A DNA stretch of 64,000 bases from Mycolicibacterium fluoranthenivorans (lineage in GTDB: Bacteria > Actinomycetota > Actinomycetes > Mycobacteriales > Mycobacteriaceae): NCBI RefSeq assembly GCF_011758805.1, contig NZ_JAANOW010000001.1:558001-622000 (forward strand), read 5' to 3'. Below the pieces are notes generated by a model that was not told the origin of the DNA, did not search any database, and saw only the letters and a list, made by a program, of their open reading frames with translations. The number at the start of each line of letters is the position of its first letter. Within the stretch, counting starts at the first letter, position 1. Below are positions 47,556 through 59,768 of this stretch, piece after piece. A program made the position numbers and the translations under genes.

Positions 47556-47739
47556 TGGCCTGAACTATACCGCCCGGTAACCCCATCGCAAAGGGGCTCT
47601 GAGCAAATTGTCGCCAGCGAACCAACCGCCTGGTTGATTGGGCGGCTCTCGACGCTCATTTTTGCCGTTTGACCTGCAATGACATTCAATCTGTGATGCT
47701 CGCCACGGAGGCGCTCAACAAACCTCTAAGGTGAGGCGC

Positions 47740-48819
47740 ATGAGGCGTGTGGTGGTATGGGGAACGGGCAATATGGGCTCGACGGCGATCCGCTCGACGG
47801 TCGCCTTCCCGGGTCTTGAGCTGGCCGGCGTCATCACCTCGTCCGCCGACAAGGCCGGCCGCGACGCCGCCTCGTTTGCCGGACTTCCGGACTCCACCGG
47901 CGTGCTGGCCACCACCGATGTCGACGACGCCCTGACCGGGGCCGACGCGGTGGCCTATATGGCCTCCGGCGATATCCGGCCCGAGGAGGCGATCGCCGAT
48001 ATCGAGCGCGCGCTCAAGGCCGGCGCGCATGTAGTGACGCCGTCGCTTTACTCGCTCTACGACCCGCGCTCGGCGCCACCGGAGTGGGTGGCCCGGCTCA
48101 CCTCGGCAGCCGAAGCGGGCGGGGTGTCCCTTCTGGTCAGTGGCGTCGACCCGGGCTGGGGCAACGACGCGCTCGCGGTGCTCGCGGCGGGTTTGTGTAC
48201 CCGCATCAAGACCATCCGTTGCCAGGAGATCTTCGACTACTCCACCTACAACCAGCCGCATTCGGTGAAGGTGCTCTGCGGTTTCGGCGGGCCGATGGAC
48301 GAGACACCGATGATGCTGTTGCCGTCCATCCCGACCATGGTGTGGGGCGGTAACGTCCGCCTGATCGGGCGAGGGCTCGGCCTGGAGATCGACGAGATCA
48401 CCGAGGACGTCCAGCGTCTGGCGCTCACCGAGGATGTCGACACCGTGATGGGCACCTTCGAGAAGGGCACCCAGGGAGCGTTTCGGCTCAAGGTGATCGG
48501 CTGGGCCGGCGGACAGCAGCGGGTGGTCATCGAACACATCACCCGGATCCATCCGTCCGTCGCACCGGAGTGGCCGGCTCCCGATCAGGGCGCCGGCGAT
48601 CACCGGGTGATCATCGACGGCGATCCGGAGTTGACCATCGTCGTGCGGGCCGACGTACCGGGTGGCACCCGGGCCGACGGCGGCAACACCACGGCGGCCA
48701 ACCGTCTGCTGGGGGCCATCGAATGGCTGGCCACCCAGCCCGCCGGGATCTACGACGGGCTGGATGTGCCGATCCATCCTTCGCTGCCACTCGAGGTGGA
48801 AGCGACGCGCTGGGCCTAG
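47740..48819 (+). CDS. DapB-like NAD(P)-dependent dehydrogenase, conserved by fadE5
   Basis: The product is 359 residues from ATG 47740, chosen because GGTGAGG precedes it (GTG 47731 is also in frame). The Rossmann motif is G-T-G-N-M-G-S near residues 8-14; next come a dihydrodipicolinate-reductase-like N-terminal domain and a substrate domain with V-D-P-G-W-G-N-D. Proteins of this family sit beside fadE5 in other mycobacteria; the reaction is unknown. It is divergent from fadE5 and its stop shares the bases CTAG with the stop of the truncated pks on the opposite strand. Confidence 0.82.
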   Translation: MRRVVVWGTGNMGSTAIRSTVAFPGLELAGVITSSADKAGRDAASFAGLPDSTGVLATTDVDDALTGADAVAYMASGDIRPEEAIADIERALKAGAHVVTPSLYSLYDPRSAPPEWVARLTSAAEAGGVSLLVSGVDPGWGNDALAVLAAGLCTRIKTIRCQEIFDYSTYNQPHSVKVLCGFGGPMDETPMMLLPSIPTMVWGGNVRLIGRGLGLEIDEITEDVQRLALTEDVDTVMGTFEKGTQGAFRLKVIGWAGGQQRVVIEHITRIHPSVAPEWPAPDQGAGDHRVIIDGDPELTIVVRADVPGGTRADGGNTTAANRLLGAIEWLATQPAGIYDGLDVPIHPSLPLEVEATRWA

Positions 48820-50668
48820 TCCGCGGCGGCCGGGGCCGGCTCCTCGGCAGGCGCCTCCGGCGTGACCGGGGCCGCTGGGGCATCCGAATCAGGCAGCTGC
48901 GAGACCAGGTGCTCGGCCAACTCTCCGATGGTCGGGTAGTCGAACACCGCCGTCGGGCTGATGTCGAACTTGCCACCGAACTGACCGAACAGCCGGTTGC
49001 GCAGCTCGACGGCCATCAGCGAGTCGGTGCCCAGATCCAGGAACCTGCTGGACGCCGCCGGCGGCTGCGCCAGCCGCAGGAAGCCCTGCACCTCGCGCTG
49101 CAGGAATTCGGTGATGAACCCGCCGCGCGCTGCCACCGGCAGCTCCTGCAGTTGCCGCAGCAACTCGCTGTCGCCCTGCACCGATCCGTCACCGCTGGGC
49201 AGCACCTGATCCAGCAGCGGCGGGCGGATGCCGCCCAGCATCTTCGCTGTGCGTTGCCAGTTCGCCTTCAGCACAGTGACCTGCGCCGCGCCGTGCCGGA
49301 TCGCCTCGCCGAGGGCGGCCAGCGCCGCCGACGGCTCCAGCGGCATCATGCCCTGCGCACTGAGGTTGGCGACGGCGGCCTGCGAGCTGGCCATACCGCC
49401 ATGACCCCACGGCCCGAAGTTGACGGCGGTGGCCGGCAGCCCCTGCGCCCGCCGCTGTGCCACAAGCCCGTCGAGCAGCGCGTTGGCGGTGGCGTAGTTG
49501 GCCTGCGACGGCGAACCGAGCACCGCGGACGCAGACGAGTACACGATGAAGAACTCGAGGTCATCGTCCTTGGTCAACCGGTGCAGGTGGTGCGCACCAT
49601 AGGCTTTCGGGCCCAACGTCGTCCGGAAGTGCTCCAGATCCTGCTGCGGGAGCAGCGCATCGTCGAGCACACCGGCCAGGTGTGCGATACCGGCCAGCGG
49701 CGGCAGTTCGGCGCGGATCTTGTCCAACAGCGCCGCCACCGAAACCTCGTCCCCGACGTCGGCCGAGAACACGTGGATCCGGCAGTGGAACCGCTCGGTG
49801 ATGGCGTCGATGGCCTGCTGGGTCTCCGCGTCGGGGGTACGCCGGCTGGTCAGCACGATGTCCCCGGCGCCGAGCTGAGCCAGATAGGACGCCGTGTGCA
49901 AGCCGAGCGCACCCAGCCCACCGGTGAGCAGGTAGCTCCGATCGCCATGCGGCTGAAGCGGTTTCGGCATCTGCACGACGATCTTGCCGATGTGCCGAGC
50001 CTGCTGCATCCGGCGGAACGCGGTCCTGGCCTCGGTCAGCGGGTAGACCTCGGCGGGCACCGGGGTCCACACACCGGTGGCCAACCCCTCGGACACCTCC
50101 GCCATCAGCTTCTGGATGTGATCGGGGTCGGACATCATCGTCACGTCCAGCGCCACGATCTCGTAGTTGATATCGGGCCGCACCTCGGCCATCCGCTCGA
50201 CGGGCCAGATATCGCGCTTGGCGATCTCGGCGAACCGACCGCCGTGGGCCGTGGCCCGCAACGTCGCTTCGATGAAGCCCTCACTGGTCAAGGAGTTGAG
50301 CACCACGTCCACACCCGCGCCGTCGGTATCCGCGAGGATCTGATCCGCGAAATCCGTTGTCCGCGAGTCGTAGACGTACTCCACACCCATCTCCCGCAGC
50401 GTGGCGCGCTTGTACTTGCTCGCGGTGGCGAACACGATCGCGCCGTGCTGGCGGGCCATCTGGACCGCGGCCAGACCCACGCCGCCGCTGGCGGCGTGGA
50501 TGAGCACCTTGTCGCCGGGCTTGAGCTGCGCCCAGTCGAAGGCCAACCGGACCGTCAGTGCCGCAGCGGAGATGGTCGCCGCATCCACCGAGCTGACGCC
50601 GTCGGGTACCACTGCCAGCAGCGGTGCCGGGACGTTGAGCCGGCTGGAGAACGCGCCCGAGCAGTACT
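48816..50668 (-). pseudogene. pks: C-terminal remnant of the TPP type I polyketide synthase (ER-KR-ACP)
   Basis: About 610 residues of normal PKS sequence remain. They cover most of an enoyl-reductase domain (from G-A-F-S-S-R-L-N-V-P-A, with A-A-S-G-G-V-G-L-A-A-V-Q), a ketoreductase domain (L-T-G-G-L-G-A-L-G, Y-x-S-A-S-A and A-N-Y-A-T-A-N), and an acyl carrier protein with L-G-T-D-S-L-M-A-V-E-L. The KS, AT and DH domains (probably over 1500 residues) are missing, and the sequence turns into unrelated pieces at ~50645-50670. Its position between the fadE5-side gene and papA3/mmpL10 identifies it as the trehalose polyphleate PKS. It cannot work as a synthase; the surviving frame being open suggests a recent loss. 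Confidence 0.88.
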
Positions 50669-50709
50669 GGGACGTCCTGCACCAGGGGCGCGACGCGGTC
50701 TCGGAGATC
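50641..50709 (+). pseudogene. Inverted fragment of a ketosynthase N-terminus
   Basis: On the plus strand, opposite in direction to the rest of the pks, codons read R-L-E-N-A-P-E-Q-Y-W-D-V-L-H-Q-G-R-D-A-V-S-E-I-P. This is the pattern found near the start of KS domains (x-P-E-x-Y-W-D-L-L-x-x-G-R-D-A-V-x-E-V-P). It is cut at both ends and belongs to no complete gene. It is a leftover from the rearrangement that truncated pks and papA3. Confidence 0.65.
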
Positions 50710-50711
50710 CC

Positions 50712-50784
50712 ACCAGCGACGAGCTGCACGCCGTGTCGACGGTGACCGCCGGGCCGCACGAGGTCTCCAGCAGCAGCCGATGCG
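50712..50784 (-). pseudogene. Fragment of a ketosynthase active site
   Basis: On the minus strand, codons read H-R-L-L-L-E-T-S directly joined to G-P-A-V-T-V-D-T-A-C-S-S-S-L-V. The first motif normally lies about 90 residues before the second; the second is the KS active-site cysteine motif. So the block itself carries an internal deletion. It is out of frame with the ER remnant and abuts the papA3 remnant. Confidence 0.75.
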
Positions 50785-51423
50785 GTCGGCGAGATGTTGC
50801 TCGACGCAGATCAGACGGCACGATTCGAAGCGGCGTGCACCGCGGCGGGTACGCGTTTCGTCGGCGGCCTGTACGCGTGCACCGCCATGGTCGAACACGA
50901 GCTGACCGGTGCGGCGACCTACTACGGGCTCACCCCGCGGGACACCCGCCGCACATCGGACAACTTCATGACCCAGGGCTGGTTCACTGGCCTGGTCCCG
51001 ATCACCGTCCCGATCGCCGCGACGACTTTCGCCGAAGCCGCGTGGGCGGCGCAGACTTCGTTCGATTCCGGGCTCAATCTGGCGAGGGTTCCGTATTACC
51101 GCGTACTGGAATTGGCGCCGTGGTTGGAGAACCCGCATCCGAACTTTCCCGTTTCGAACTTCCTGCACGGTGGCGCAGCTCCGCTGAACGCGGTGATCGC
51201 TGCAGCTGAGATGGGTTATTCGAACAATATCGGAATTTACTCCGACGGCAGATTCTCCTATCAGTTGACGATCTACGTATTCCGGTACGAGGCCGGTACG
51301 GCAATGGCGGTGATGTTTCCGGACAACCCGGTCGCCCAGAAGTCGGTCGCCCGCTACATCGCCACGATGAAGTCCGTGGTCGAGCAGGTGGCTGACAGCG
51401 GCGATTGGGGCCGTTTTGGGTAG
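50785..51423 (+). pseudogene. papA3: C-terminal remnant of papA3 (acyltransferase)
   Basis: About 210 residues remain of a ~470-residue polyketide-associated acyltransferase. The C-terminal half matches PapA1-type enzymes: L-D-A-D-Q-T-A-R-F, Y-Y-G-L-T-P-R-D-T-R-R-T, F-D-S-G-L-N-L-A-R-V-P, L-E-L-A-P-W-L and M-F-P-D-N-P-V-A-Q-K-S-V. The N-terminal half with the H-x-x-x-D catalytic motif is absent, so it is inactive. ATG 50794 is only a chance start. It lies head-to-head with the pks remnant, as expected if one event removed the divergent 5' halves of both. mmpL10 follows 94 bases downstream. Confidence 0.85.
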
Positions 51424-51517: not shown

Positions 51518-54496
51518 GTGCGCCGACTAGCTGATTTTGTCGTGCGAATGCCCTGGGCGGTGGTCGGCCTGTGGGTTGCCTTGGCGGTGGTGCTGCCGCT
51601 GACGTTCCCGAGCCTGAACGAGATGGCTCAGAAACACCCGCTGGCCATGCTGCCGGCCGATGCGCCGTCCAGCGTCGCCGCCAAGCAGATGACCGAGGCG
51701 TTCCACGAGCCCGGCGGCGATGACCTTCTGTTGGTGGTCCTGACCGATGAGCGTGGGCTCGGTCCGGCCCATGAGGCCACCTACCGCAAATTGGTCGACG
51801 CGCTGCGCGATGACCAGCAAGACGTGGTGATGCTGCAGGATTTCGTCGGGACGCCCGCCCTGCGGTCGTTCCTGACGAGTAAGGACGGCAAGTCCTGGGT
51901 CCTGCCGGTGGGTCTTGCGGGTGCGTTGGGCACCCCGCAGTCCTATGCCGCCTTCACCCGGGTGGCCGAGATCGTCAAACAGAACACCGCGGGAAGCCCG
52001 CTGGAGGTCCACCTCACCGGCCCGGCGGCCACCGTCGCCGACCTGACTGTCGCGGGGCAGCGCGACCGTCTGCCGATCGAGATCGCGATCGCCGTCCTGG
52101 TGCTCCTGGTGCTGCTGGTGGTGTACCGCAATCCGGTCACCATGCTGCTGCCGTTGACCGGTATCGGGATCTCTCTCGTGATCGCGCAGTCCCTGGTGGC
52201 CGGCTTGTCGCAGCTGACCGGCCTGGGGGTGTCCAACCAGGCCATCATTCTGCTCAGCGCGATCATCGCGGGTGCCGGCACGGACTACGCGGTCTTCCTG
52301 ATCAGTCGCTACCACGACTACGTGCGAATGGGCGAGAGCTCCGAGGACGCGGTCCGGCATGCCCTGGGTTCGGTGGGGAAGGTGATCACGGCGTCGGCGG
52401 CGACCATCGGACTCACCTTCGTCGGGATCAGTTTCGCCCGGATGGGAGTGTTCTCCACGGTCGGTGTGTCCTCCGCGATCGGGATCGGGGTGGCCTTCCT
52501 GGCCGCCCTGACACTGCTGCCGGCCATCCTCGCCATCGTCGGGCCACGGGGCTGGGTCACGCCGCGGCGCGAGCTGACCACGCGGATGTGGCGCCGGTCC
52601 GGGATTCGCATCGTGCGCCGCCCGCGACTGCACCTGGTGGCCAGTCTGCTGGTGCTGATGCTGCTGGCCAGCTGTGTCGGTCTGGCGAAGTACAACTACG
52701 ACGACCGCAAAGCGGTACAGGCGTCGGACCCGAGTTCGGTCGGGTATGCAGCGCTGGAACGCCATTTCGACCTCAACCAGTCGGTTCCGTCCTATGTCTT
52801 GGTCCGGTCGCCGCACGATCTGCGTACCCCGCAGTCCCTCGCGGACCTGGAGCAGATGGCCGAACGCATCACCCAGGTGCCCGATATCTCGATGGTCAGC
52901 GGTATCACCCGGCCGCTCGGCGTGGTGCCGCAGGAGTTCCGGGCCACCTACCAAGCCGGACTGGTCGGTGATCGACTGGGTACCGGCGCCGACATGATCA
53001 CCCAGAACATGACCGACCTCAATCGGCTGTCGAAGGGGGCGGGCACCCTGGCGACCGGCCTCGGCGATGTCCGCGGTCAGGTCAACCAGATCGCCGGGAC
53101 CATCCAGCAGATGGTCAACGCCTTCTCGTCGATGCGCGACCAGAACGGCGGCGACAAGCTGGTCCGCAACGTCGAAGTCGGCGCCAAGCTGGTCGACAGC
53201 ATCAACCAGCTCGGCAGTTCGATGGGCATCAGCGTCACGGCTGCCAAGGACATGTTCGCCTGGGTGGGGCCGGTGCTGACGGCACTGCAGGGCAATGTGA
53301 CCTGCGATCTGGACGCCTCGTGCAGTGAGACCCGTGCGCACTTCTCCCGGCTGGCCCAGGCACGCCAGGACGGCACCCTGGATGAGATCAATAAGCTTGC
53401 GGGACAACTACAGTCGATGCAAGACAGGCAATCGCTGAATACCTCGCTGAATCAGCTGGGCACCGCCTTCACCAACCTCACCAAGCTGATGAAGACGTTG
53501 GGTCTGGACTCGCCCGCCGGGGCGCAGGCGACTTTGGGCAAGCTTCGGCAACAGGCCGACCGTTCGGCGACCGGCAGCCGTGAGGTGGCGACCGGGGTGA
53601 ACGAGGTGGTCGACCAGATCCAGCTCATGCGCAGCGGTCTGGACCAGGCGTCGGCGTTCCTGCTGTCGATGAAGCAGAACGCGGCGGGCCCCGCGATGGC
53701 GGGATTCAACATCCCGCCCGAGGTGCTGCAGCTGCCGGACTTCAAGGCCGCCGCCAAGATGTTCATCTCGCCGGACGGGCACTCGGTGCGCTACCTGGTG
53801 CTCACCAAACTCGATCCGTTCAGTGTCGCGGCGATGGATCAGGTCAACGCGATCAGTGACGCGGCCAAGGGCGCTCAGCCGAACACCAGCCTGGCCGACG
53901 CGTCGATCTCGATGGGCGGATACCCGGCCGCGCTGAGCGACACCCGCGACTACTACCAAATGGACATCCGGTTCATCATCGCCGTCACCATCATCGTGGT
54001 GCTGCTGACGTTGATGCTGCTGCTCCGTTCGGTCATCGCACCGCTGTATCTGGTGGGGTCCGTGGTGATTTCGTTCTTCGCGGCGCTCGGTATCGGTGTG
54101 CTGGTGTTCCAGTACGGCTTCGGTCAGCAGTTGCACTGGACCGTGCCACCGTTGGCCTTCGTGGTGTTGGTCGCGGTGGGGGCGGACTACAACCTGCTCT
54201 TCGCGTCCCGACTGCGCGACGAGTCTCCGCACGGCACGCGGTACGGCATCATCCGGACGCTGTCATCGACGGGCGGTGTGATCACGGCGGCGGGCCTGAT
54301 CTTCGCGGCCTCGATGTGGGGTCTGCTGTTCTCCAGCATCGGTACCGTGGTGCAAGGCGGGTTCGTCATCGGTGCCGGAATCCTGCTGGACACATTCCTG
54401 GTCCGGACCATCACCGTGCCGGCCATCGCTACGCTGGTCGGCAAGGCGAACTGGTGGCCATCTCGACCGAAATCGCAGGGGAGCAGTCAGGCATGA
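51518..54496 (+). CDS. mmpL10: MmpL-family RND transporter (MmpL10 type)
   Basis: The product is 992 residues with two repeats of a transmembrane helix followed by a large periplasmic domain and five helices. The proton-relay Asp-Tyr pairs are visible as [10 protein letters not shown] (TM4 equivalent) and [10 protein letters not shown] (TM10 equivalent). The long second periplasmic domain contains a coiled-coil-like stretch (residues ~500-730). In the TPP locus MmpL10 moves a diacyltrehalose precursor across the membrane. GTG 51518 follows AGGTGGGGG. The gene is intact although the biosynthetic genes beside it are truncated. Confidence 0.9.
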
Positions 54497-55626
54497 GGAA
54501 ACTTCTCGCCGCGGTGACGGTGCTGGTGACGGTCAGTGCCACGGGCGCCTCAGGTATCGCCGGAGCCGACGAGCCGGCGCCCGTACCCGCCCCGGGAGCG
54601 GGATCTGCTGCCCCGGAACCTCAGCGTGGCACCCCTGGCAACGCGTACGCGCTCGGTGGTGCCCATGTCCTCGGTATTCCCTATGACGAGTACATCCGCC
54701 GCACGGGCGCCGACTGGTTCCCCGGCTTGAATCGCATGAACATCCAATATCCGGCAGGTCAGGTTCAGGGGCACACCCTGGAGCGACTGTTCCCCGGCAT
54801 CGGAAAGTTGGATGACGGTTTCCCGGGGCTGGGACTTGACGGCCCGAGCATCGGCGAGTCGGTCGACGTGGGTGAGGGCAACCTCATCCATGCCATCCAG
54901 ACAGGTGGTAGCGGCACCGCCATGGGGTTGTCCGAGGGCGCCATGGTGCTCAACGCGGTGAAGAACCGGCTCGCCACCGATCCGGCCGCGCCTCCGCCGG
55001 ATCAGTTGTCCTTCGCGACCTTCGGTGATCCTCTGACGACGAACCCGTTCGGCCAGAGCTTCCTGAGGCAGAACTTCCCGGTCGGCAGCGTCGTCCCGTC
55101 GCTGGACTTCACCATGCCGCCGGAGGTGGACAGCCAGTACGACACCTACCAATTCATCTCCCCGTACGACAGCATCGCCGACTGGCCGCAACGCCAGGAC
55201 AACATCATCTCCGTCACCAACGCGATCGTCGGCCTGGCCACCGGTCACACCGCGGTGGCCTTCACCAATCCGTCGAATGTGCCGCCCCAGAATGTCGCGG
55301 TCACGTACAACTCGCGGGGCGCGAAGACGACGACGTACATGATTCCCGAGCAGCACCTCCCGCTGGTTCTCCCGTTCAAGTACATCGGGGTGGACGAGGG
55401 CACGCTGAACAAGCTCGACGGGGTGCTCAAACCCTATGTGGATGCCGGATATACGCGTAACGACAATCCGTTGACCGCTCCCATCACCGTGGATCCTGTT
55501 CGCGGCTACGACCCCGCGGTGGTCACGGCGGGGGCGAGTGAGGCCGCCTTTGGCAGTGGAGGCGTCGATCCGCTGTCTCAGCTGATGGCCGGGTTCCAGT
55601 ACGTGTTGGATCACAACGTGCACTGA
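54493..55626 (+). CDS. PE-PPE domain serine hydrolase/transacylase of the TPP locus
   Basis: The product is 377 residues from ATG 54493, overlapping the mmpL10 stop (ATGA). It has a signal peptide (cleavage near A-G-A, residue ~25) and a PE-PPE (PF08237) alpha/beta-hydrolase domain with G-L-S-E-G (Ser147), then a catalytic Asp/His set expected near the C-terminus. In other mycobacteria the equivalent PE protein transfers acyl groups between diacyltrehaloses to form TPP outside the membrane. Without a TPP PKS it has no local substrate. Confidence 0.85.
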
Positions 55627-55729
55627 GCAACCCCGACGTGGCAACGAAAGTGGTTCTGAGCCGCTTACATTGTCGTACAGGGATGTTGGACTCGCTGCCG
55701 GTTGATTGCCCGGATGCCCAGGTCCGGGA

Positions 55730-56215
55730 TCAACTCAGAGTGAAGTGGCAAAGGTCGTCATACTTGGCGCAGAAGTTCACGCAATTGTCGTACTGTTTCT
55801 TGCTCTCATAGCACCAGCTCTGATCCTTGTTGAGGTGAGCGGCCTTCTTCTCGATGCCTTTTCGGTTTCGACCTTCTGGGGACCCTGCGGAGGCGCCAGG
55901 TGATCCCGAGTCAGCCAACAGCATGTTGCAGTTCAGGTTCAACAGATAGGACGACGGGCCGCTGGGCTTTCCGCTGCCATCGAGAGGTTTAGTCTTACGC
56001 CAACTAGCCACGGTGCACTTGTCGCGATCTTGGACATCGCCAACTATTGATGCAACCACCAACGTGCCATGCCAATTGGAGATCAGTCCTTGCGCCTCGG
56101 AATACGTCTTGCCGATAAGAGGATCGCCCTTCGCTTCGGCTGGAGCGGCAAAAGTCATGACAGAAGCTGAAATCGCGGTGAGAATGATCGCGTTTGGCAA
56201 GACCTTTGAAAGCAT
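55730..56215 (-). CDS. Small secreted PASTA-like protein
   Basis: The product is 161 residues from ATG 56215. A Sec signal ends near A-E-A-K (~27). The segment I-G-K-T-Y-S-E-A-Q-G-L-I-S-N-W-H-G is a PASTA-like alpha/beta motif common in small exported mycobacterial proteins. The C-terminal half has six Cys (for example W-C-Y, N-C-V-N-F-C, L-C-H), suggesting disulfides. Base composition is visibly less GC-rich than the TPP genes. Function unknown. Confidence 0.7.
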   Translation of the reverse strand: MLSKVLPNAIILTAISASVMTFAAPAEAKGDPLIGKTYSEAQGLISNWHGTLVVASIVGDVQDRDKCTVASWRKTKPLDGSGKPSGPSSYLLNLNCNMLLADSGSPGASAGSPEGRNRKGIEKKAAHLNKDQSWCYESKKQYDNCVNFCAKYDDLCHFTLS

Positions 56216-56718
56216 GGCAACCCTCCGCGTGGTCAGCTGTTGCTAGTGCAGGCGTTGAATACTTCTGACCATCGCTGGGCAGTGGGATTGCAGGCTACCA
56301 CGCAGATCGGGCTCTTAAATGAGGAGTTTCGAGCCCGTGACTACAGGTCACGGGCGCTTTCCATCATGGTTCTTTGCTCTGAAAGATGGGCGGCTGAGGT
56401 TTGCCGCGTAACTAGATTTGTCAGACGTTTGCGCCATTCAGTGAACAAGCAGGTTCTTGTCAGGTTTGGAAGGATTGCTGCCCTGCACTTCCTCGGCGGG
56501 GAGTAAGCGACCGCGCGTTTGCCGTTCTGATAAGACATTTCCTGTAATTCGGTATCGCAGAACTCGTTGAACCGAAGAATGCAATCTGCGGCTCACCTGT
56601 GCGGAGCTCTGGCGTCATCGATCGCTCGGGTTGCCTCGTAAACAGACGAGGCGTCTTCACCAGTCAGCGGGGCAATCTAGACATTACGCCTTCGGAATCG
56701 ACTACCAACCGGCCGCTC
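56216..56718. other. 503-base non-coding gap with two hairpins
   Basis: No convincing gene is seen. There are two terminator-like stems: GCCCGTGAC/GTCACGGGC at 56333-56355 and GCCTCGT/ACGAGGC at 56633-56652, the latter facing the fadD23 3' end. GC content is lower than in the flanking genes. Short frames have no ribosome-binding site or recognised motif. Confidence 0.6.
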
Positions 56719-58431
56719 CTATACGTCCAGTCGCACGAACTGCCCTTGACGGTGCTGCTCGATGCAGGCGGCGCGGCGGATCTTGCCGCTGGTGGTGGTC
56801 GGGATCGAGCCGGGCGCCACCAGTACGATATCGGCGACATGGAGTCCGTGTGCGCGTGAAATCGCCGCGGTCACATCGTTTTTCACCACGGCCAGGTCGT
56901 CGGAACCGTCGAGTTTCTTCAGCTCGATCACGGTGACCAACTTCTCGGTCTGCTCGTCGGGCACCGCGATGGCCGCCACCCGGCCGCGGGTGATCTGCTG
57001 AACGGTGGCCTCGATGTCTTCGGGGTAGTAGTTGCGGCCCCGCACGATCAGCATGTCCTTGATGCGTCCGACGATGAACAGATCGCCTTCCGAGATAAAG
57101 CCCCGATCGCCGGTACGCAGCCACCCCGTCTCGGGGGTACCCGCCGGCGCATCCGCCAGCGTCGCGCCGAAGGCGGACCCGGTCTGTTCGGGCTTGCACC
57201 AGTACCCGGCGGAGACGTTCTCGCCGTGGGTCCAGATCTCGCCGATGGTGCCGTCCGGACATGGTCGGCAAGTGTCGGCGTCGACGATCCGTACCAGCGG
57301 CGAGACCGGCATGCCGTACCTCATCAGGGGTGACCCACCCGGGCTGCGGGTCGCGACGCCCTCGACCAGATCCTCGGCGGCGAACTCGACGGCTTCGGGC
57401 ACCCGGCCGCTGTTGCCGCTGGCCACGAAGACAGTTGCCTCGGCAAGTCCGTACGAGGGCACCATCATCTCGGGCCGGAAGCCCACGGCGCTGAACCGCT
57501 CGTTGAACTTCACCAGGGTGGGCGGATGGATCCTCTCGGCCCCGTTGATGATGCCGAGGATCCCGCTGAGGTCGAGATCGGACAGGTCGGCCTCGCTGGC
57601 GCGCCGTGCCGCGAAATCGAACGCGAAGTTAGGGGCGGCCGACCACGCGTACCTGGGCCGAGACAACGCCTGCACCCAGCGCATCGGATTGCCCAGGAAC
57701 GCCAGCGGGCTCATCAGGTCCGCCGCGTGACCGGCGAAGATGGGCCCCGCGATCCCGAGCATCAAGCCCATATCGTGGTAAAACGGCAGCCACGAGACCA
57801 GTTTGGTGCCGTCGGGGAGCACGCCTCCGTGCTGGGCGAAGTAGTCGGCCATCAACTGCTCGTAGTTCGCCTGCAGATTGCGGTGGCTGATCATCACGCC
57901 GGCCGGCAACCGAGTCGACCCCGAGGTGTACTGCAGATAGGCGGTATCCGGGCCCTTTGCCGGCGCGGAGCTCGTGGGGGCGGGCCTGTCGAGATCCAGG
58001 TTGTCCACGGACACCACCGCGATCATCGCGGCACCGTCGTCGACGTACTGCGTGGCGAGGTGGGCGACCGCCGAGGTGGTCAACACGACCGCTGGCGAGG
58101 TGTCGGCGACCACGGCGCTGACCCGCTCATCATGCGAGCCGGGCACCGGCACCGACAGGGGCACAGCGATGAAACCGGCCTGCATGGCGCCCAGGAACGC
58201 CACGATGTAGTCCAGGCCCTGCGGAGCGATGATCAGCGCCCGGTCGCCGGGGGACCCGTACTGCTCGAACTCCAGCGCCGCGTTGAGCGTGCGGCGGTGC
58301 ACCTGCGCCCAGGTCAGCGTCTCAGCCACACCGGCAGGGTCGACGTCATAGTCGGTGAAGGTGAAGGCTTCGGCGTCGGGAGTCGCGATGGCGCGTTCCT
58401 GGAGCAGGGTCAGGAGGGACGCGTTTGGCAT
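56719..58431 (-). CDS. fadD23: FadD23-type fatty-acyl-AMP ligase
   Basis: The product is 570 residues from ATG 58431. The adenylate-forming motifs are Y-T-S-G-S-T-R-L-P-A-G-V-M-I (P-loop), S-Y-G-L-A-E-A-T-V (A5), G-W-L-R-T-G-D (A7) and S-G-K-I-R-R-A (the A10 lysine). The length and S-W-L-P-F-Y-H-D-M-G-L motif fit fatty-acyl-AMP ligases, which load acyl-adenylates onto PKS carrier domains. In TPP synthesis FadD23 loads the starter acid onto the PKS, whose loading domains are missing here. The gene is intact and lies across a gap from the PE-PPE gene. Confidence 0.88.
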   Translation of the reverse strand: MPNASLLTLLQERAIATPDAEAFTFTDYDVDPAGVAETLTWAQVHRRTLNAALEFEQYGSPGDRALIIAPQGLDYIVAFLGAMQAGFIAVPLSVPVPGSHDERVSAVVADTSPAVVLTTSAVAHLATQYVDDGAAMIAVVSVDNLDLDRPAPTSSAPAKGPDTAYLQYTSGSTRLPAGVMISHRNLQANYEQLMADYFAQHGGVLPDGTKLVSWLPFYHDMGLMLGIAGPIFAGHAADLMSPLAFLGNPMRWVQALSRPRYAWSAAPNFAFDFAARRASEADLSDLDLSGILGIINGAERIHPPTLVKFNERFSAVGFRPEMMVPSYGLAEATVFVASGNSGRVPEAVEFAAEDLVEGVATRSPGGSPLMRYGMPVSPLVRIVDADTCRPCPDGTIGEIWTHGENVSAGYWCKPEQTGSAFGATLADAPAGTPETGWLRTGDRGFISEGDLFIVGRIKDMLIVRGRNYYPEDIEATVQQITRGRVAAIAVPDEQTEKLVTVIELKKLDGSDDLAVVKNDVTAAISRAHGLHVADIVLVAPGSIPTTTSGKIRRAACIEQHRQGQFVRLDV

Positions 58432-58544
58432 GGTGGTCAGGCTACTCAACGGCTTGCCTGTGAGATGAACGGGACGATGACTGCGGGCGCGGCCACCTGC
58501 TCCTGAAACGCCGCGCAGCTGAGGTCCGTGAGCGGCCTGGATCT

Positions 58545-59768
58545 TCAATCCCCGAAATGACTAAGGGCATCAACCAGTTCTGGCCGTTGACCAGACGTTG
58601 TTGAAAGGGGTGTTTCCCCGTCTGTCGATGGGTACGAGGGTTGAGAGAAGCCGGTGTTGTCGAAGACCCCGAACCTCTTGTCGTCCGTAGTTCCTTGATC
58701 TGCCAGCGCCCACACGAAGGATCCGAGAATATCGACGCGGTTGTGCAGACGCTGTGCTGACTCATACCGCGCGATCCGAGCATGTGCAGGGATGTCCTGA
58801 CCACCACCGTATTCGCCGATGAGCACCGGGAGTTTGGTGCGTTGAATCAAGGAGTCGATCTGAGTGGGGTCAACGCCTTCCAGGTAGATGTGCACGTCGA
58901 CAAAATCAGCGCCGTCAGGGTGGACCCACAACTGATACGACAGAGATTCGGTGTCCTGCCAGAACGCTTCTGCCGTCGGGTAGCTACCGCTTGAGTCCGA
59001 GGTTGTGAGAGGTACGTTGGGAGCGACGCGTCGAATCGCAGCGTAAAGGGCGAGAACGTCATCAACTGTCAGGCCGTCAGAATGGCTCCCGCCACCCTCT
59101 TGAAAGATATCGAAGCCGATTACGTTGGGATATTTTGCCAAGGCCGCCGCCGATGCCGTAATCACCGATGTCACGGCCGGATCCCGAAAATTCCATGGAG
59201 GGACACCGCCGAGGCCGCCGAACTGGGTGTACATGTACGCCCATTTCTCGGTCAGGCTCGGGTACAGGCGCAATCCGTTTTCCTGGCAGTAGGTCGCGAG
59301 TTGTTCCCAGCGTGCGATGTACGTGGCCAGCGGGATGGCGGGCAGATCAGGATTGATACGCGCGAGCACGACCTGTGGAGCACCGATTATGCGGATTGCG
59401 TTGAGGCCAAGCGCCATTGCGCGGTCGACCTGCGGCTTGATCCAGTTCGTCCAGTCCCACTCAGCCCAGAGTCCGGGAGGCCCTGCCAATGGCTTTGGAA
59501 CGATGTTGCCGCCCTTGATCTTCGGGGCTGCAATAGACGCACTGGCCAAGCGCGTATGCGATGACAGGGACTGATTGGTGCGACCGCTGAGCCGCTGCTC
59601 GTTGCTGCCAGGTACCTGAGTGAAATCAGGCGAAGTCTCGTGGTGGCCCGCGAAGCCTGAAAGTGCAGCGTTGGCAGCTTCTAGAGTGCCGGTTGCGAGA
59701 GTGGTCGCCGGATGAAAGACGCAGACCATTAATAACGCCGCCAGCATCGCTAGCAATCGTCGCAGCAC
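58545..59768 (-). CDS. Secreted GH5/cellulase-like glycoside hydrolase
   Basis: The product is 407 residues. A signal peptide ends near residue 26, then a ~60-residue linker and a TIM-barrel: L-G-L-N-A-I-R-I-I-G, Y-P-N-V-I-G-F-D-I-F-Q-E-G-G-G (general-acid Glu; the usual N-E-P is Q-E-G) and V-L-I-G-E-Y-G-G (nucleophile Glu). This resembles secreted endoglucanase/beta-mannanase-type proteins next to exopolysaccharide clusters. The Q-E-G replacement leaves the general acid but alters its neighbour, so activity is uncertain. GC is lower than in the backbone genes. Confidence 0.72.
   Translation of the reverse strand: MLRRLLAMLAALLMVCVFHPATTLATGTLEAANAALSGFAGHHETSPDFTQVPGSNEQRLSGRTNQSLSSHTRLASASIAAPKIKGGNIVPKPLAGPPGLWAEWDWTNWIKPQVDRAMALGLNAIRIIGAPQVVLARINPDLPAIPLATYIARWEQLATYCQENGLRLYPSLTEKWAYMYTQFGGLGGVPPWNFRDPAVTSVITASAAALAKYPNVIGFDIFQEGGGSHSDGLTVDDVLALYAAIRRVAPNVPLTTSDSSGSYPTAEAFWQDTESLSYQLWVHPDGADFVDVHIYLEGVDPTQIDSLIQRTKLPVLIGEYGGGQDIPAHARIARYESAQRLHNRVDILGSFVWALADQGTTDDKRFGVFDNTGFSQPSYPSTDGETPLSTTSGQRPELVDALSHFGD

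What the first reader, a model, noticed from the sequence alone, without database searches (positions are those of the whole stretch)
48816..51423. Natural loss of trehalose polyphleate synthesis by deletion of the divergent 5' halves of pks and papA3
pks keeps only ER-KR-ACP and papA3 only its C-terminal half; they face away from each other, so one deletion centred on their shared promoter explains both truncations. mmpL10, the PE-PPE gene and fadD23 remain intact. Predicted: no TPP, hence altered surface and probable resistance to phages that need TPP.
Basis: partly seen in the sequence, partly recalled or inferred. Interest (0 to 1): 0.82.

Follow-up and report, generated by a model that had tools for sequence, protein, structure and literature searches.

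The report
Scarred deletion removing a lipid pathway
This mycobacterium appears to have lost, quite recently, the enzymes that build a large surface glycolipid which some phages need, through a 10-kilobase deletion whose join is patched with three tiny scraps of the deleted gene, one of them flipped; the loss is of a known sort, the patchwork join is the unusual part.

Summary
The truncations are real in the assembly and larger and stranger than described. Measured on relative G004, the window has lost about 10.28 kb: pks codons 1-3066 of 3,689, the 298-bp gap between the divergent genes, and papA3 codons 1-260. The join is not a clean deletion. Positions 50659-50783 are made wholly of three scraps of the deleted first ketosynthase (about 55, 47 and 27 bp, the first inverted), with overlaps of 2, 2, 0 and 0 bp. 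No other copy of the lost parts was found in the 6.41-Mb genome. Of 395 genomes of the genus, 279 carry the TPP acyltransferase PE over its cut-off; only this one of them lacks the tested part of the first pks module. The remnants show no relaxed constraint, so the loss looks recent. Likely mechanism: break repair with templated filler; Ku and a LigD-type gene are present. Loss of TPP, and insensitivity to TPP-needing phages, follow from published work on other species and were not tested. Natural pks deletions are already published for M. abscessus. Misassembly is unlikely but only reads can exclude it.

The parts
48816..50658 (-). segment A: 3' remnant of pks (zinc-binding half of ER, KR, ACP), collinear with relatives up to 50658 = pks codon 3067 of G004
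   Evidence: the match ends at 50658 in five of five relatives
50657..50711 (+). segment B: scrap of the deleted first ketosynthase (G004 codons 47-63), inverted relative to the pks remnant
50710..50756 (-). segment C: scrap of the deleted first ketosynthase around the active-site motif DTACSSS (G004 codons 192-208), original orientation
   Evidence: 96% to G004 over 46 bp; the only other place found in the own genome is 38 bp at 87%
50757..50783 (-). segment D: scrap of the deleted first ketosynthase (G004 codons about 117-127), original orientation but out of order
   Evidence: found in four of the five relatives, not in G018; gapped score 19-21 at this place versus 7-9 if segment C merely ran on
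50784..51423 (+). segment E: papA3 3' remnant from about codon 261, HVHGD motif lost; open frame 50794-51423
51518..54496 (+). mmpL10, frame intact, upstream promoter region deleted
54490..55626 (+). PE acyltransferase of the TPP locus, frame intact
   Evidence: NCBIfam NF041570 634.8 bits, cut-off 580
56719..58548 (-). fadD23-type fatty-acid--AMP ligase, frame intact, opposite strand
   Evidence: NF004509 864.8 bits, cut-off 775

Best explanation
A recent, single complex event destroyed TPP synthesis. A break or a collapsed fork in the divergent pks/papA3 region led to loss of about 10.28 kb. The ends were joined through three short pieces of the lost first-ketosynthase region, captured as fragments or copied by template switching, one of them inverted. 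Shown: the segments, their source, orientation and order, the absence of any other copy in the assembly, and the lack of decay in the remnants. Inferred: that repair was by Ku/LigD end joining or by a template switch, that no TPP is made (no ketosynthase or acyltransferase domain, no papA3 motif, no promoter region), and that phages which need TPP bind poorly.
For: Every base of the joint is accounted for, overlaps 2, 2, 0, 0, and shuffles do not reach the scores. The segment D place is better than a run-on of C. Flanks of five relatives are collinear with the two remnants; four of the five have open pks frames of 3,690-3,719 codons. Closest sequence L019 (90.4% DNA) runs straight through breakpoint A. 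No other copy of the pks front or papA3 front. PE present but the module-1 linker absent in 1 of 279 PE-positive genomes, the window's own. pks remnant dN/dS 0.067-0.138 in 8 pairs with this genome versus 0.077-0.148 in the 28 other pairs. Ku beside a 757-codon LigD-type frame. No N run in 20 fetched pieces and long shared contig ends. The M. smegmatis pks deletion mutant makes no TPP (PMC10465359, passage).
Against: No reads were available, so misassembly is not excluded. No lipid or phage data. One genome per species could be searched, so strain-level distribution is unknown. Assembly type is inferred. The LigD-type frame matches the model in two pieces, both under its cut-off, one annotated with a TAG inside. 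The fifth relative, G009, has pks sequence throughout but an interrupted frame. Segment D is weak in G018: score 12, equal to the shuffle maximum.
Confidence: 0.82

Rival explanations
1. Assembly artefact: a chimeric read or wrongly filled gap bridged the repetitive two-module pks, and about 10 kb was dropped.
For: pks has two similar modules, a usual place for collapse; a mosaic join is what a chimeric read can look like; no read evidence is at hand.
Against: The lost sequence, including the papA3 front, was not found in the six contigs. The outer breakpoints share no repeat beyond chance: within 200 bp on either side the best match is 17 bp at 88%, E 0.019, away from the breakpoints, so module collapse does not explain them. 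No N run in the 20 pieces looked at, 391 kb. Joints are exact to the base.
Confidence: 0.09
2. Loss during laboratory passage of the sequenced stock, not in nature. This concerns where the event happened and is compatible with the mechanism above.
For: The remnants show no decay, as a very young lesion would. TPP is called non-essential and is tied to clumping in the titles of PMC10148836 and PMC5524727 (search listing), so passage could favour loss.
Against: Nothing in the sequence separates this from a young natural event.
Confidence: 0.25
3. Old loss, with the remnants kept for another function, for example a free-standing KR-ACP protein.
For: Both remnants are open frames with low dN/dS.
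Against: The start region of the 647-aa frame is made of scrap sequence; all ketosynthase and acyltransferase domains, most of the ER lobe, the papA3 motif and the promoter region are gone. Low dN/dS equals that of the other pairs, as expected for a recent loss.
Confidence: 0.04
4. Two or more separate events: first a local rearrangement inside the first ketosynthase, then a plain deletion.
For: All three scraps come from one 483-bp stretch, so a shuffled ketosynthase could have existed first.
Against: The scraps lie exactly between the outer breakpoints with nothing else between them, and in the relatives their source places are in normal order. L019 does not reach that region and says nothing on it.
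Confidence: 0.1

Closest known systems
Natural pks lesions of M. abscessus clinical isolates GD262/GD273 (3,645-bp deletion) and GD155/GD286 (30.2-kb insertion), PMC10465359 section 12
   Same: Spontaneous large lesion of the TPP pks in an isolate, with phage profiles consistent with TPP loss for GD273 and GD286
   Different: Here the loss is about 10.28 kb, also takes the papA3 front and the shared promoter region, is in another species, and has a templated mosaic join; I did not see the base-level joins of the published ones
Engineered M. smegmatis pks, papA3, mmpL10, fadD23 and PE mutants (PMC10465359 section 14, passages)
   Same: Same genes lost; the pks, mmpL10 and PE mutants make no TPP and TPP mutants resist BPs and Muddy
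   Different: Laboratory single-gene mutants, not natural and not both genes
Templated insertions or filler DNA at break-repair joints in eukaryotes (for example PMC5120786, PMC8654963; search listing and abstract starts only)
   Same: Recalled: short nearby sequence copied or captured at a deletion joint, sometimes inverted, with little microhomology
   Different: Those mechanisms are described for eukaryotes; this is a bacterium with Ku and a LigD-type gene, mechanism untested

Membership tests
TPP biosynthetic locus (pks, papA3, mmpL10, PE, fadD23) | PE acyltransferase equivalog NF041570 | tested here: met
   634.8 bits against a 580 cut-off
TPP biosynthetic locus (pks, papA3, mmpL10, PE, fadD23) | two-module pks of about 3,700 residues, divergent from papA3 | tested here: not met
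   only 3' remnants remain; relatives keep it. The locus is a broken member, not an active one
TPP biosynthetic locus (pks, papA3, mmpL10, PE, fadD23) | mmpL10 and a fadD23-type ligase with open frames beside PE | tested here: met
Natural TPP-loss lesion | pks grossly disrupted where relatives keep it | tested here: met
   1 of 279 PE-positive genomes lacks the module-1 linker; relatives
Natural TPP-loss lesion | TPP absent from lipids and TPP-dependent phages fail | not testable with these tools
   needs TLC or MS and plaque tests
Templated-insertion repair joint | filler made wholly of nearby sequence, little or no microhomology, no homologous repeat at the ends | tested here: met
Templated-insertion repair joint | a defined repair pathway (Ku/LigD end joining or template switch) | tested here: inconclusive
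   Ku and a LigD-type frame under the model's cut-off exist; the pathway itself was not tested

The most novel reading that the evidence does not exclude
The joint is a real record of template-switching or fragment-capture break repair in a wild mycobacterium: three micro-pieces from one 483-bp stretch of the lost gene, one flipped, stitched with 0-2 bp of overlap, in an event that removed a phage co-receptor pathway in one step.
Probability: 0.6. Interest if true: 0.58.

Novelty: new member of a known kind. Interest (0 to 1): 0.42.

Why it matters
It adds a two-gene TPP-null genotype outside M. abscessus, useful for asking what TPP does and which phages depend on it. The base-exact mosaic joint is a readable trace of how mycobacteria repair breaks with filler, and can be tested in laboratory strains lacking Ku or LigD.

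Tried and rejected
Second copy of pks or papA3 elsewhere in the genome: rejected. The other large pks (2,093 aa, C1 near 3.03 Mb, NF041183 3514 bits against 2400, beside a papA-like gene 49% like PapA3) is a one-module synthase of another type and I do not expect it to stand in. Deletion between direct repeats: rejected, nothing above chance between the outer breakpoints. Contig C6 as carrier of the missing half: rejected, its 1,845-aa synthase frame (Pks13 by my guess, not tested) is 47% like the missing part over 436 residues. Joint shared with other species: rejected, full-length match in 1 of 396 genomes, the own one; the other listed matches are 39-99 bp stretches (capped list). Segment D as a mere run-on of C: rejected, scores 7-9 against 19-21, although BLAST did align C through to about 50791 with gaps in G034 and a few others.

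The pks part was read in a wrong frame by mistake and is not used; one search replaces it. The census of 80 loci found 69 full-length pks frames, 7 cut by contig ends and 4 short (L019, L023, L051 with Ns, L066); these four were only compared by tblastn. Literature searches for templated filler in mycobacterial end joining showed nothing specific in their listings.

Full report
What is there. The window is G000:C1:558001-622000 of a 6.41-Mb, six-contig genome. At 48816-50759(-) lies a 647-aa frame with the zinc-binding half of an enoylreductase, a ketoreductase and an acyl-carrier domain; at 50794-51423(+) a 209-aa piece of a condensation-type acyltransferase; then an MmpL transporter, a PE-PPE-domain acyltransferase and, on the other strand, a fatty-acid--AMP ligase. 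The PE protein passes the cut-off of NCBIfam's 'acyltransferase PE' equivalog, 634.8 against 580 bits. With pks, papA3, mmpL10 and fadD23 this is the gene set reported for TPP synthesis (PMC10465359, passages).

Comparison with relatives. A search of 61 genomes (the own one included) found the pks remnant and the papA3 remnant in relatives. I fetched the locus of five: G004, G034, G024, G009 and G018, where the pks remnant is 82-86% identical in DNA and the two remnants lie about 10.3 kb apart. In G004 the pks frame is 3,689 codons and papA3 469 codons, divergent from a 298-bp gap. Its domains, put together from Pfam best stretches and motif positions, are KS-AT-KR-ACP-KS-AT-DH-ER-KR-ACP. The published M. 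abscessus Pks has 3,697 residues (PMC10465359, passage). Four of the five have open pks frames: 3,702, 3,719, 3,690 and 3,695 codons stop to stop for G004, G034, G024 and G018. G009 has pks sequence throughout, but its frame is interrupted (runs of 1,029, 1,132 and 1,450 codons in the pieces seen); I cannot tell sequencing error from a real break there. papA3 is complete in all five. The window keeps pks from codon 3067 and papA3 from about codon 261. ADH_N of the ER (residues 3007-3078 in G004) and the HVHGD motif of papA3 (residue 171) are thus mostly or wholly lost; that the latter is the catalytic site is recalled from knowledge of Pap enzymes.

The joint. Base-by-base extension against the relatives gives five segments: A up to 50658; B 50657-50711; C 50710-50756; D 50757-50783; E from 50784. 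Five relatives were used for A, B, C and E, four for D. B is an inverted piece of pks codons 47-63, C of codons 192-208 (ketosynthase motif DTACSSS at 199), D of codons about 117-127. Overlaps are 2, 2, 0 and 0 bp and no base is left over. These edges take the best relative each time and may be off by a few bases, since this species' own lost sequence is unknown. Best ungapped scores of B, C and D against the deleted interval of G004 are 27, 38 and 19; none of 200 shuffles each reached them (maxima 15, 14, 12). D is the weakest: 15, 16 and 16 in G034, G024 and G009, and 12 in G018, no better than the shuffle maximum. A rival reading of D, that C simply runs on with gaps, scores 7-9 in five relatives against 19-21 for the D place in four.

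Is it real. The lost pks front and papA3 front were not found elsewhere in the genome; the other hits are other synthases, the remnant itself and a 49% PapA paralogue. A ketosynthase search gave 17 places, six of them near-complete domains; none is a TPP-type pks by the comparison. Twenty fetched pieces (391 kb) hold no run of N. Contig ends share stretches of 596 to 3,000 bp at 99.9-100% identity, and two different contig ends each hold a full 16S and most of a 23S gene (7 of the 12 end pieces were scanned for RNA). I read this as an assembly from long reads, which is inference. The full joint occurs in 1 of 396 genomes of the genus, the own one. Within 200 bp of the two outer breakpoints in G004 there is no shared repeat beyond chance (best 17 bp at 88%, E 0.019, away from the breakpoints).

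How rare. In 395 genomes of the genus taken at 95% completeness or more, 279 have PE over its cut-off. The pks stretch between the first acyltransferase and ketoreductase was then sought in 395 genomes under the same settings. Read by hand, 101 have no match stronger than 4.7e-31 (the others reach 3.7e-70 or better), and among the 101 only G000 has a strong PE hit, 6.5e-191, the next being 5.7e-113. So 1 of 279 has PE without that pks stretch. This counts gross loss only. Of the 150 match rows printed, a capped list, 10 have an open frame under 3,400 codons; these may be contig ends, sequencing errors or further broken genes and were not resolved. In one search, of 80 loci 69 were full length, 7 cut by contig ends and 4 short. 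So smaller pks breaks may not be rare.

How old. The pks remnant has dN/dS of 0.067-0.138 in 8 pairs with this genome and 0.077-0.148 in the 28 pairs without it, over 499 codons. The papA3 remnant has 0.027-0.092 in 5 pairs and 0.042-0.103 in the 10 others, over 207 codons. Neither remnant carries a stop in its frame. The closest sequence found, L019 (a metagenome-assembled contig titled Mycobacterium sp. nzgw94), is 90.4% identical in DNA over 1,770 bp and runs uninterrupted through breakpoint A. The loss is therefore young relative to the split from L019; passage in the laboratory cannot be excluded.

How it works. Most likely a break or fork collapse in the divergent region was mended by joining the far ends through short pieces of the lost sequence. 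Ku is encoded at C5:193564, beside a 757-codon frame matching the LigD model in two pieces, both under the curated cut-off and one flagged with a TAG inside the match; I recall that mycobacterial LigD has another domain order than the model. Capture of fragments by end joining and template switching by a polymerase both fit; the data do not separate them. Consequence: without ketosynthase and acyltransferase domains, without the PapA3 motif and without the promoter region the pathway should be dead, although the mmpL10, PE and fadD23-type frames are open. M. smegmatis pks, mmpL10 and PE mutants make no TPP, and BPs and Muddy need TPP in M. abscessus and M. smegmatis (PMC10465359, abstract and passages). 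Whether such phages infect this species at all is unknown, and ZoeJ does not depend on TPP.

What is known. Natural TPP-gene loss is published: among 143 M. abscessus clinical isolates, two carry identical 3,645-bp pks deletions and two carry 30.2-kb insertions (PMC10465359, section 12 read whole). TPPs also matter for M. abscessus virulence in a zebrafish model (PMC11633156, passages). So the loss is a new member of a known kind. For the joint, the listings returned templated insertions in eukaryotes for the most part and nothing specific to mycobacteria; only the top rows of each search were seen and this library lacks most subscription papers, so absence here is weak evidence. After checking, confidence in the main reading was lowered from 0.83 to 0.82 and the artefact rival raised from 0.08 to 0.09, because one of five relatives turned out to have an interrupted pks frame and the contig-end evidence is less sharp than first written.

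Noticed in passing
window 55630-56720: A low-GC stretch (0.55) with a 161-aa frame of no Pfam or PHROG match lies between PE and the fadD23-type gene; relative G034 has about 670 bp there, the window about 1,116.
   Followed up: partly
window 47731-48819: A dihydrodipicolinate-reductase-like gene sits between the acyl-CoA dehydrogenase and pks; the stretch is matched in relative G034 but G004 has only about 200 bp there.
   Followed up: no
relative G009, L127 and L128: Its pks is present throughout but the frame is interrupted at two or more places in a one-contig genome: sequencing error or a further natural break.
   Followed up: partly
genomes G072, G083, G147, G240, G243, G271, G289, G349, G394: At least these nine keep the pks module-1 stretch but have PE far below its cut-off or none, the mirror image of the window's state.
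   Followed up: no
genomes G017, G075, G082, G189, G225, G273, G296, G309, G351, G411, G423, G456, G457, G462: At least these have two strong matches to the TPP-type pks stretch, in frames of about 3,700-3,870 codons, suggesting a second TPP-like synthase.
   Followed up: no
rows such as G258:C3:2353323-2354363: 10 of 150 listed pks frames are under 3,400 codons; some may be further natural pks breaks.
   Followed up: partly
G000:C1:3029529-3037336 (L144): A Pks2-type synthase (NF041183, 3514 bits) with a papA-like gene beside it: a separate lipid cluster in the same genome.
   Followed up: partly
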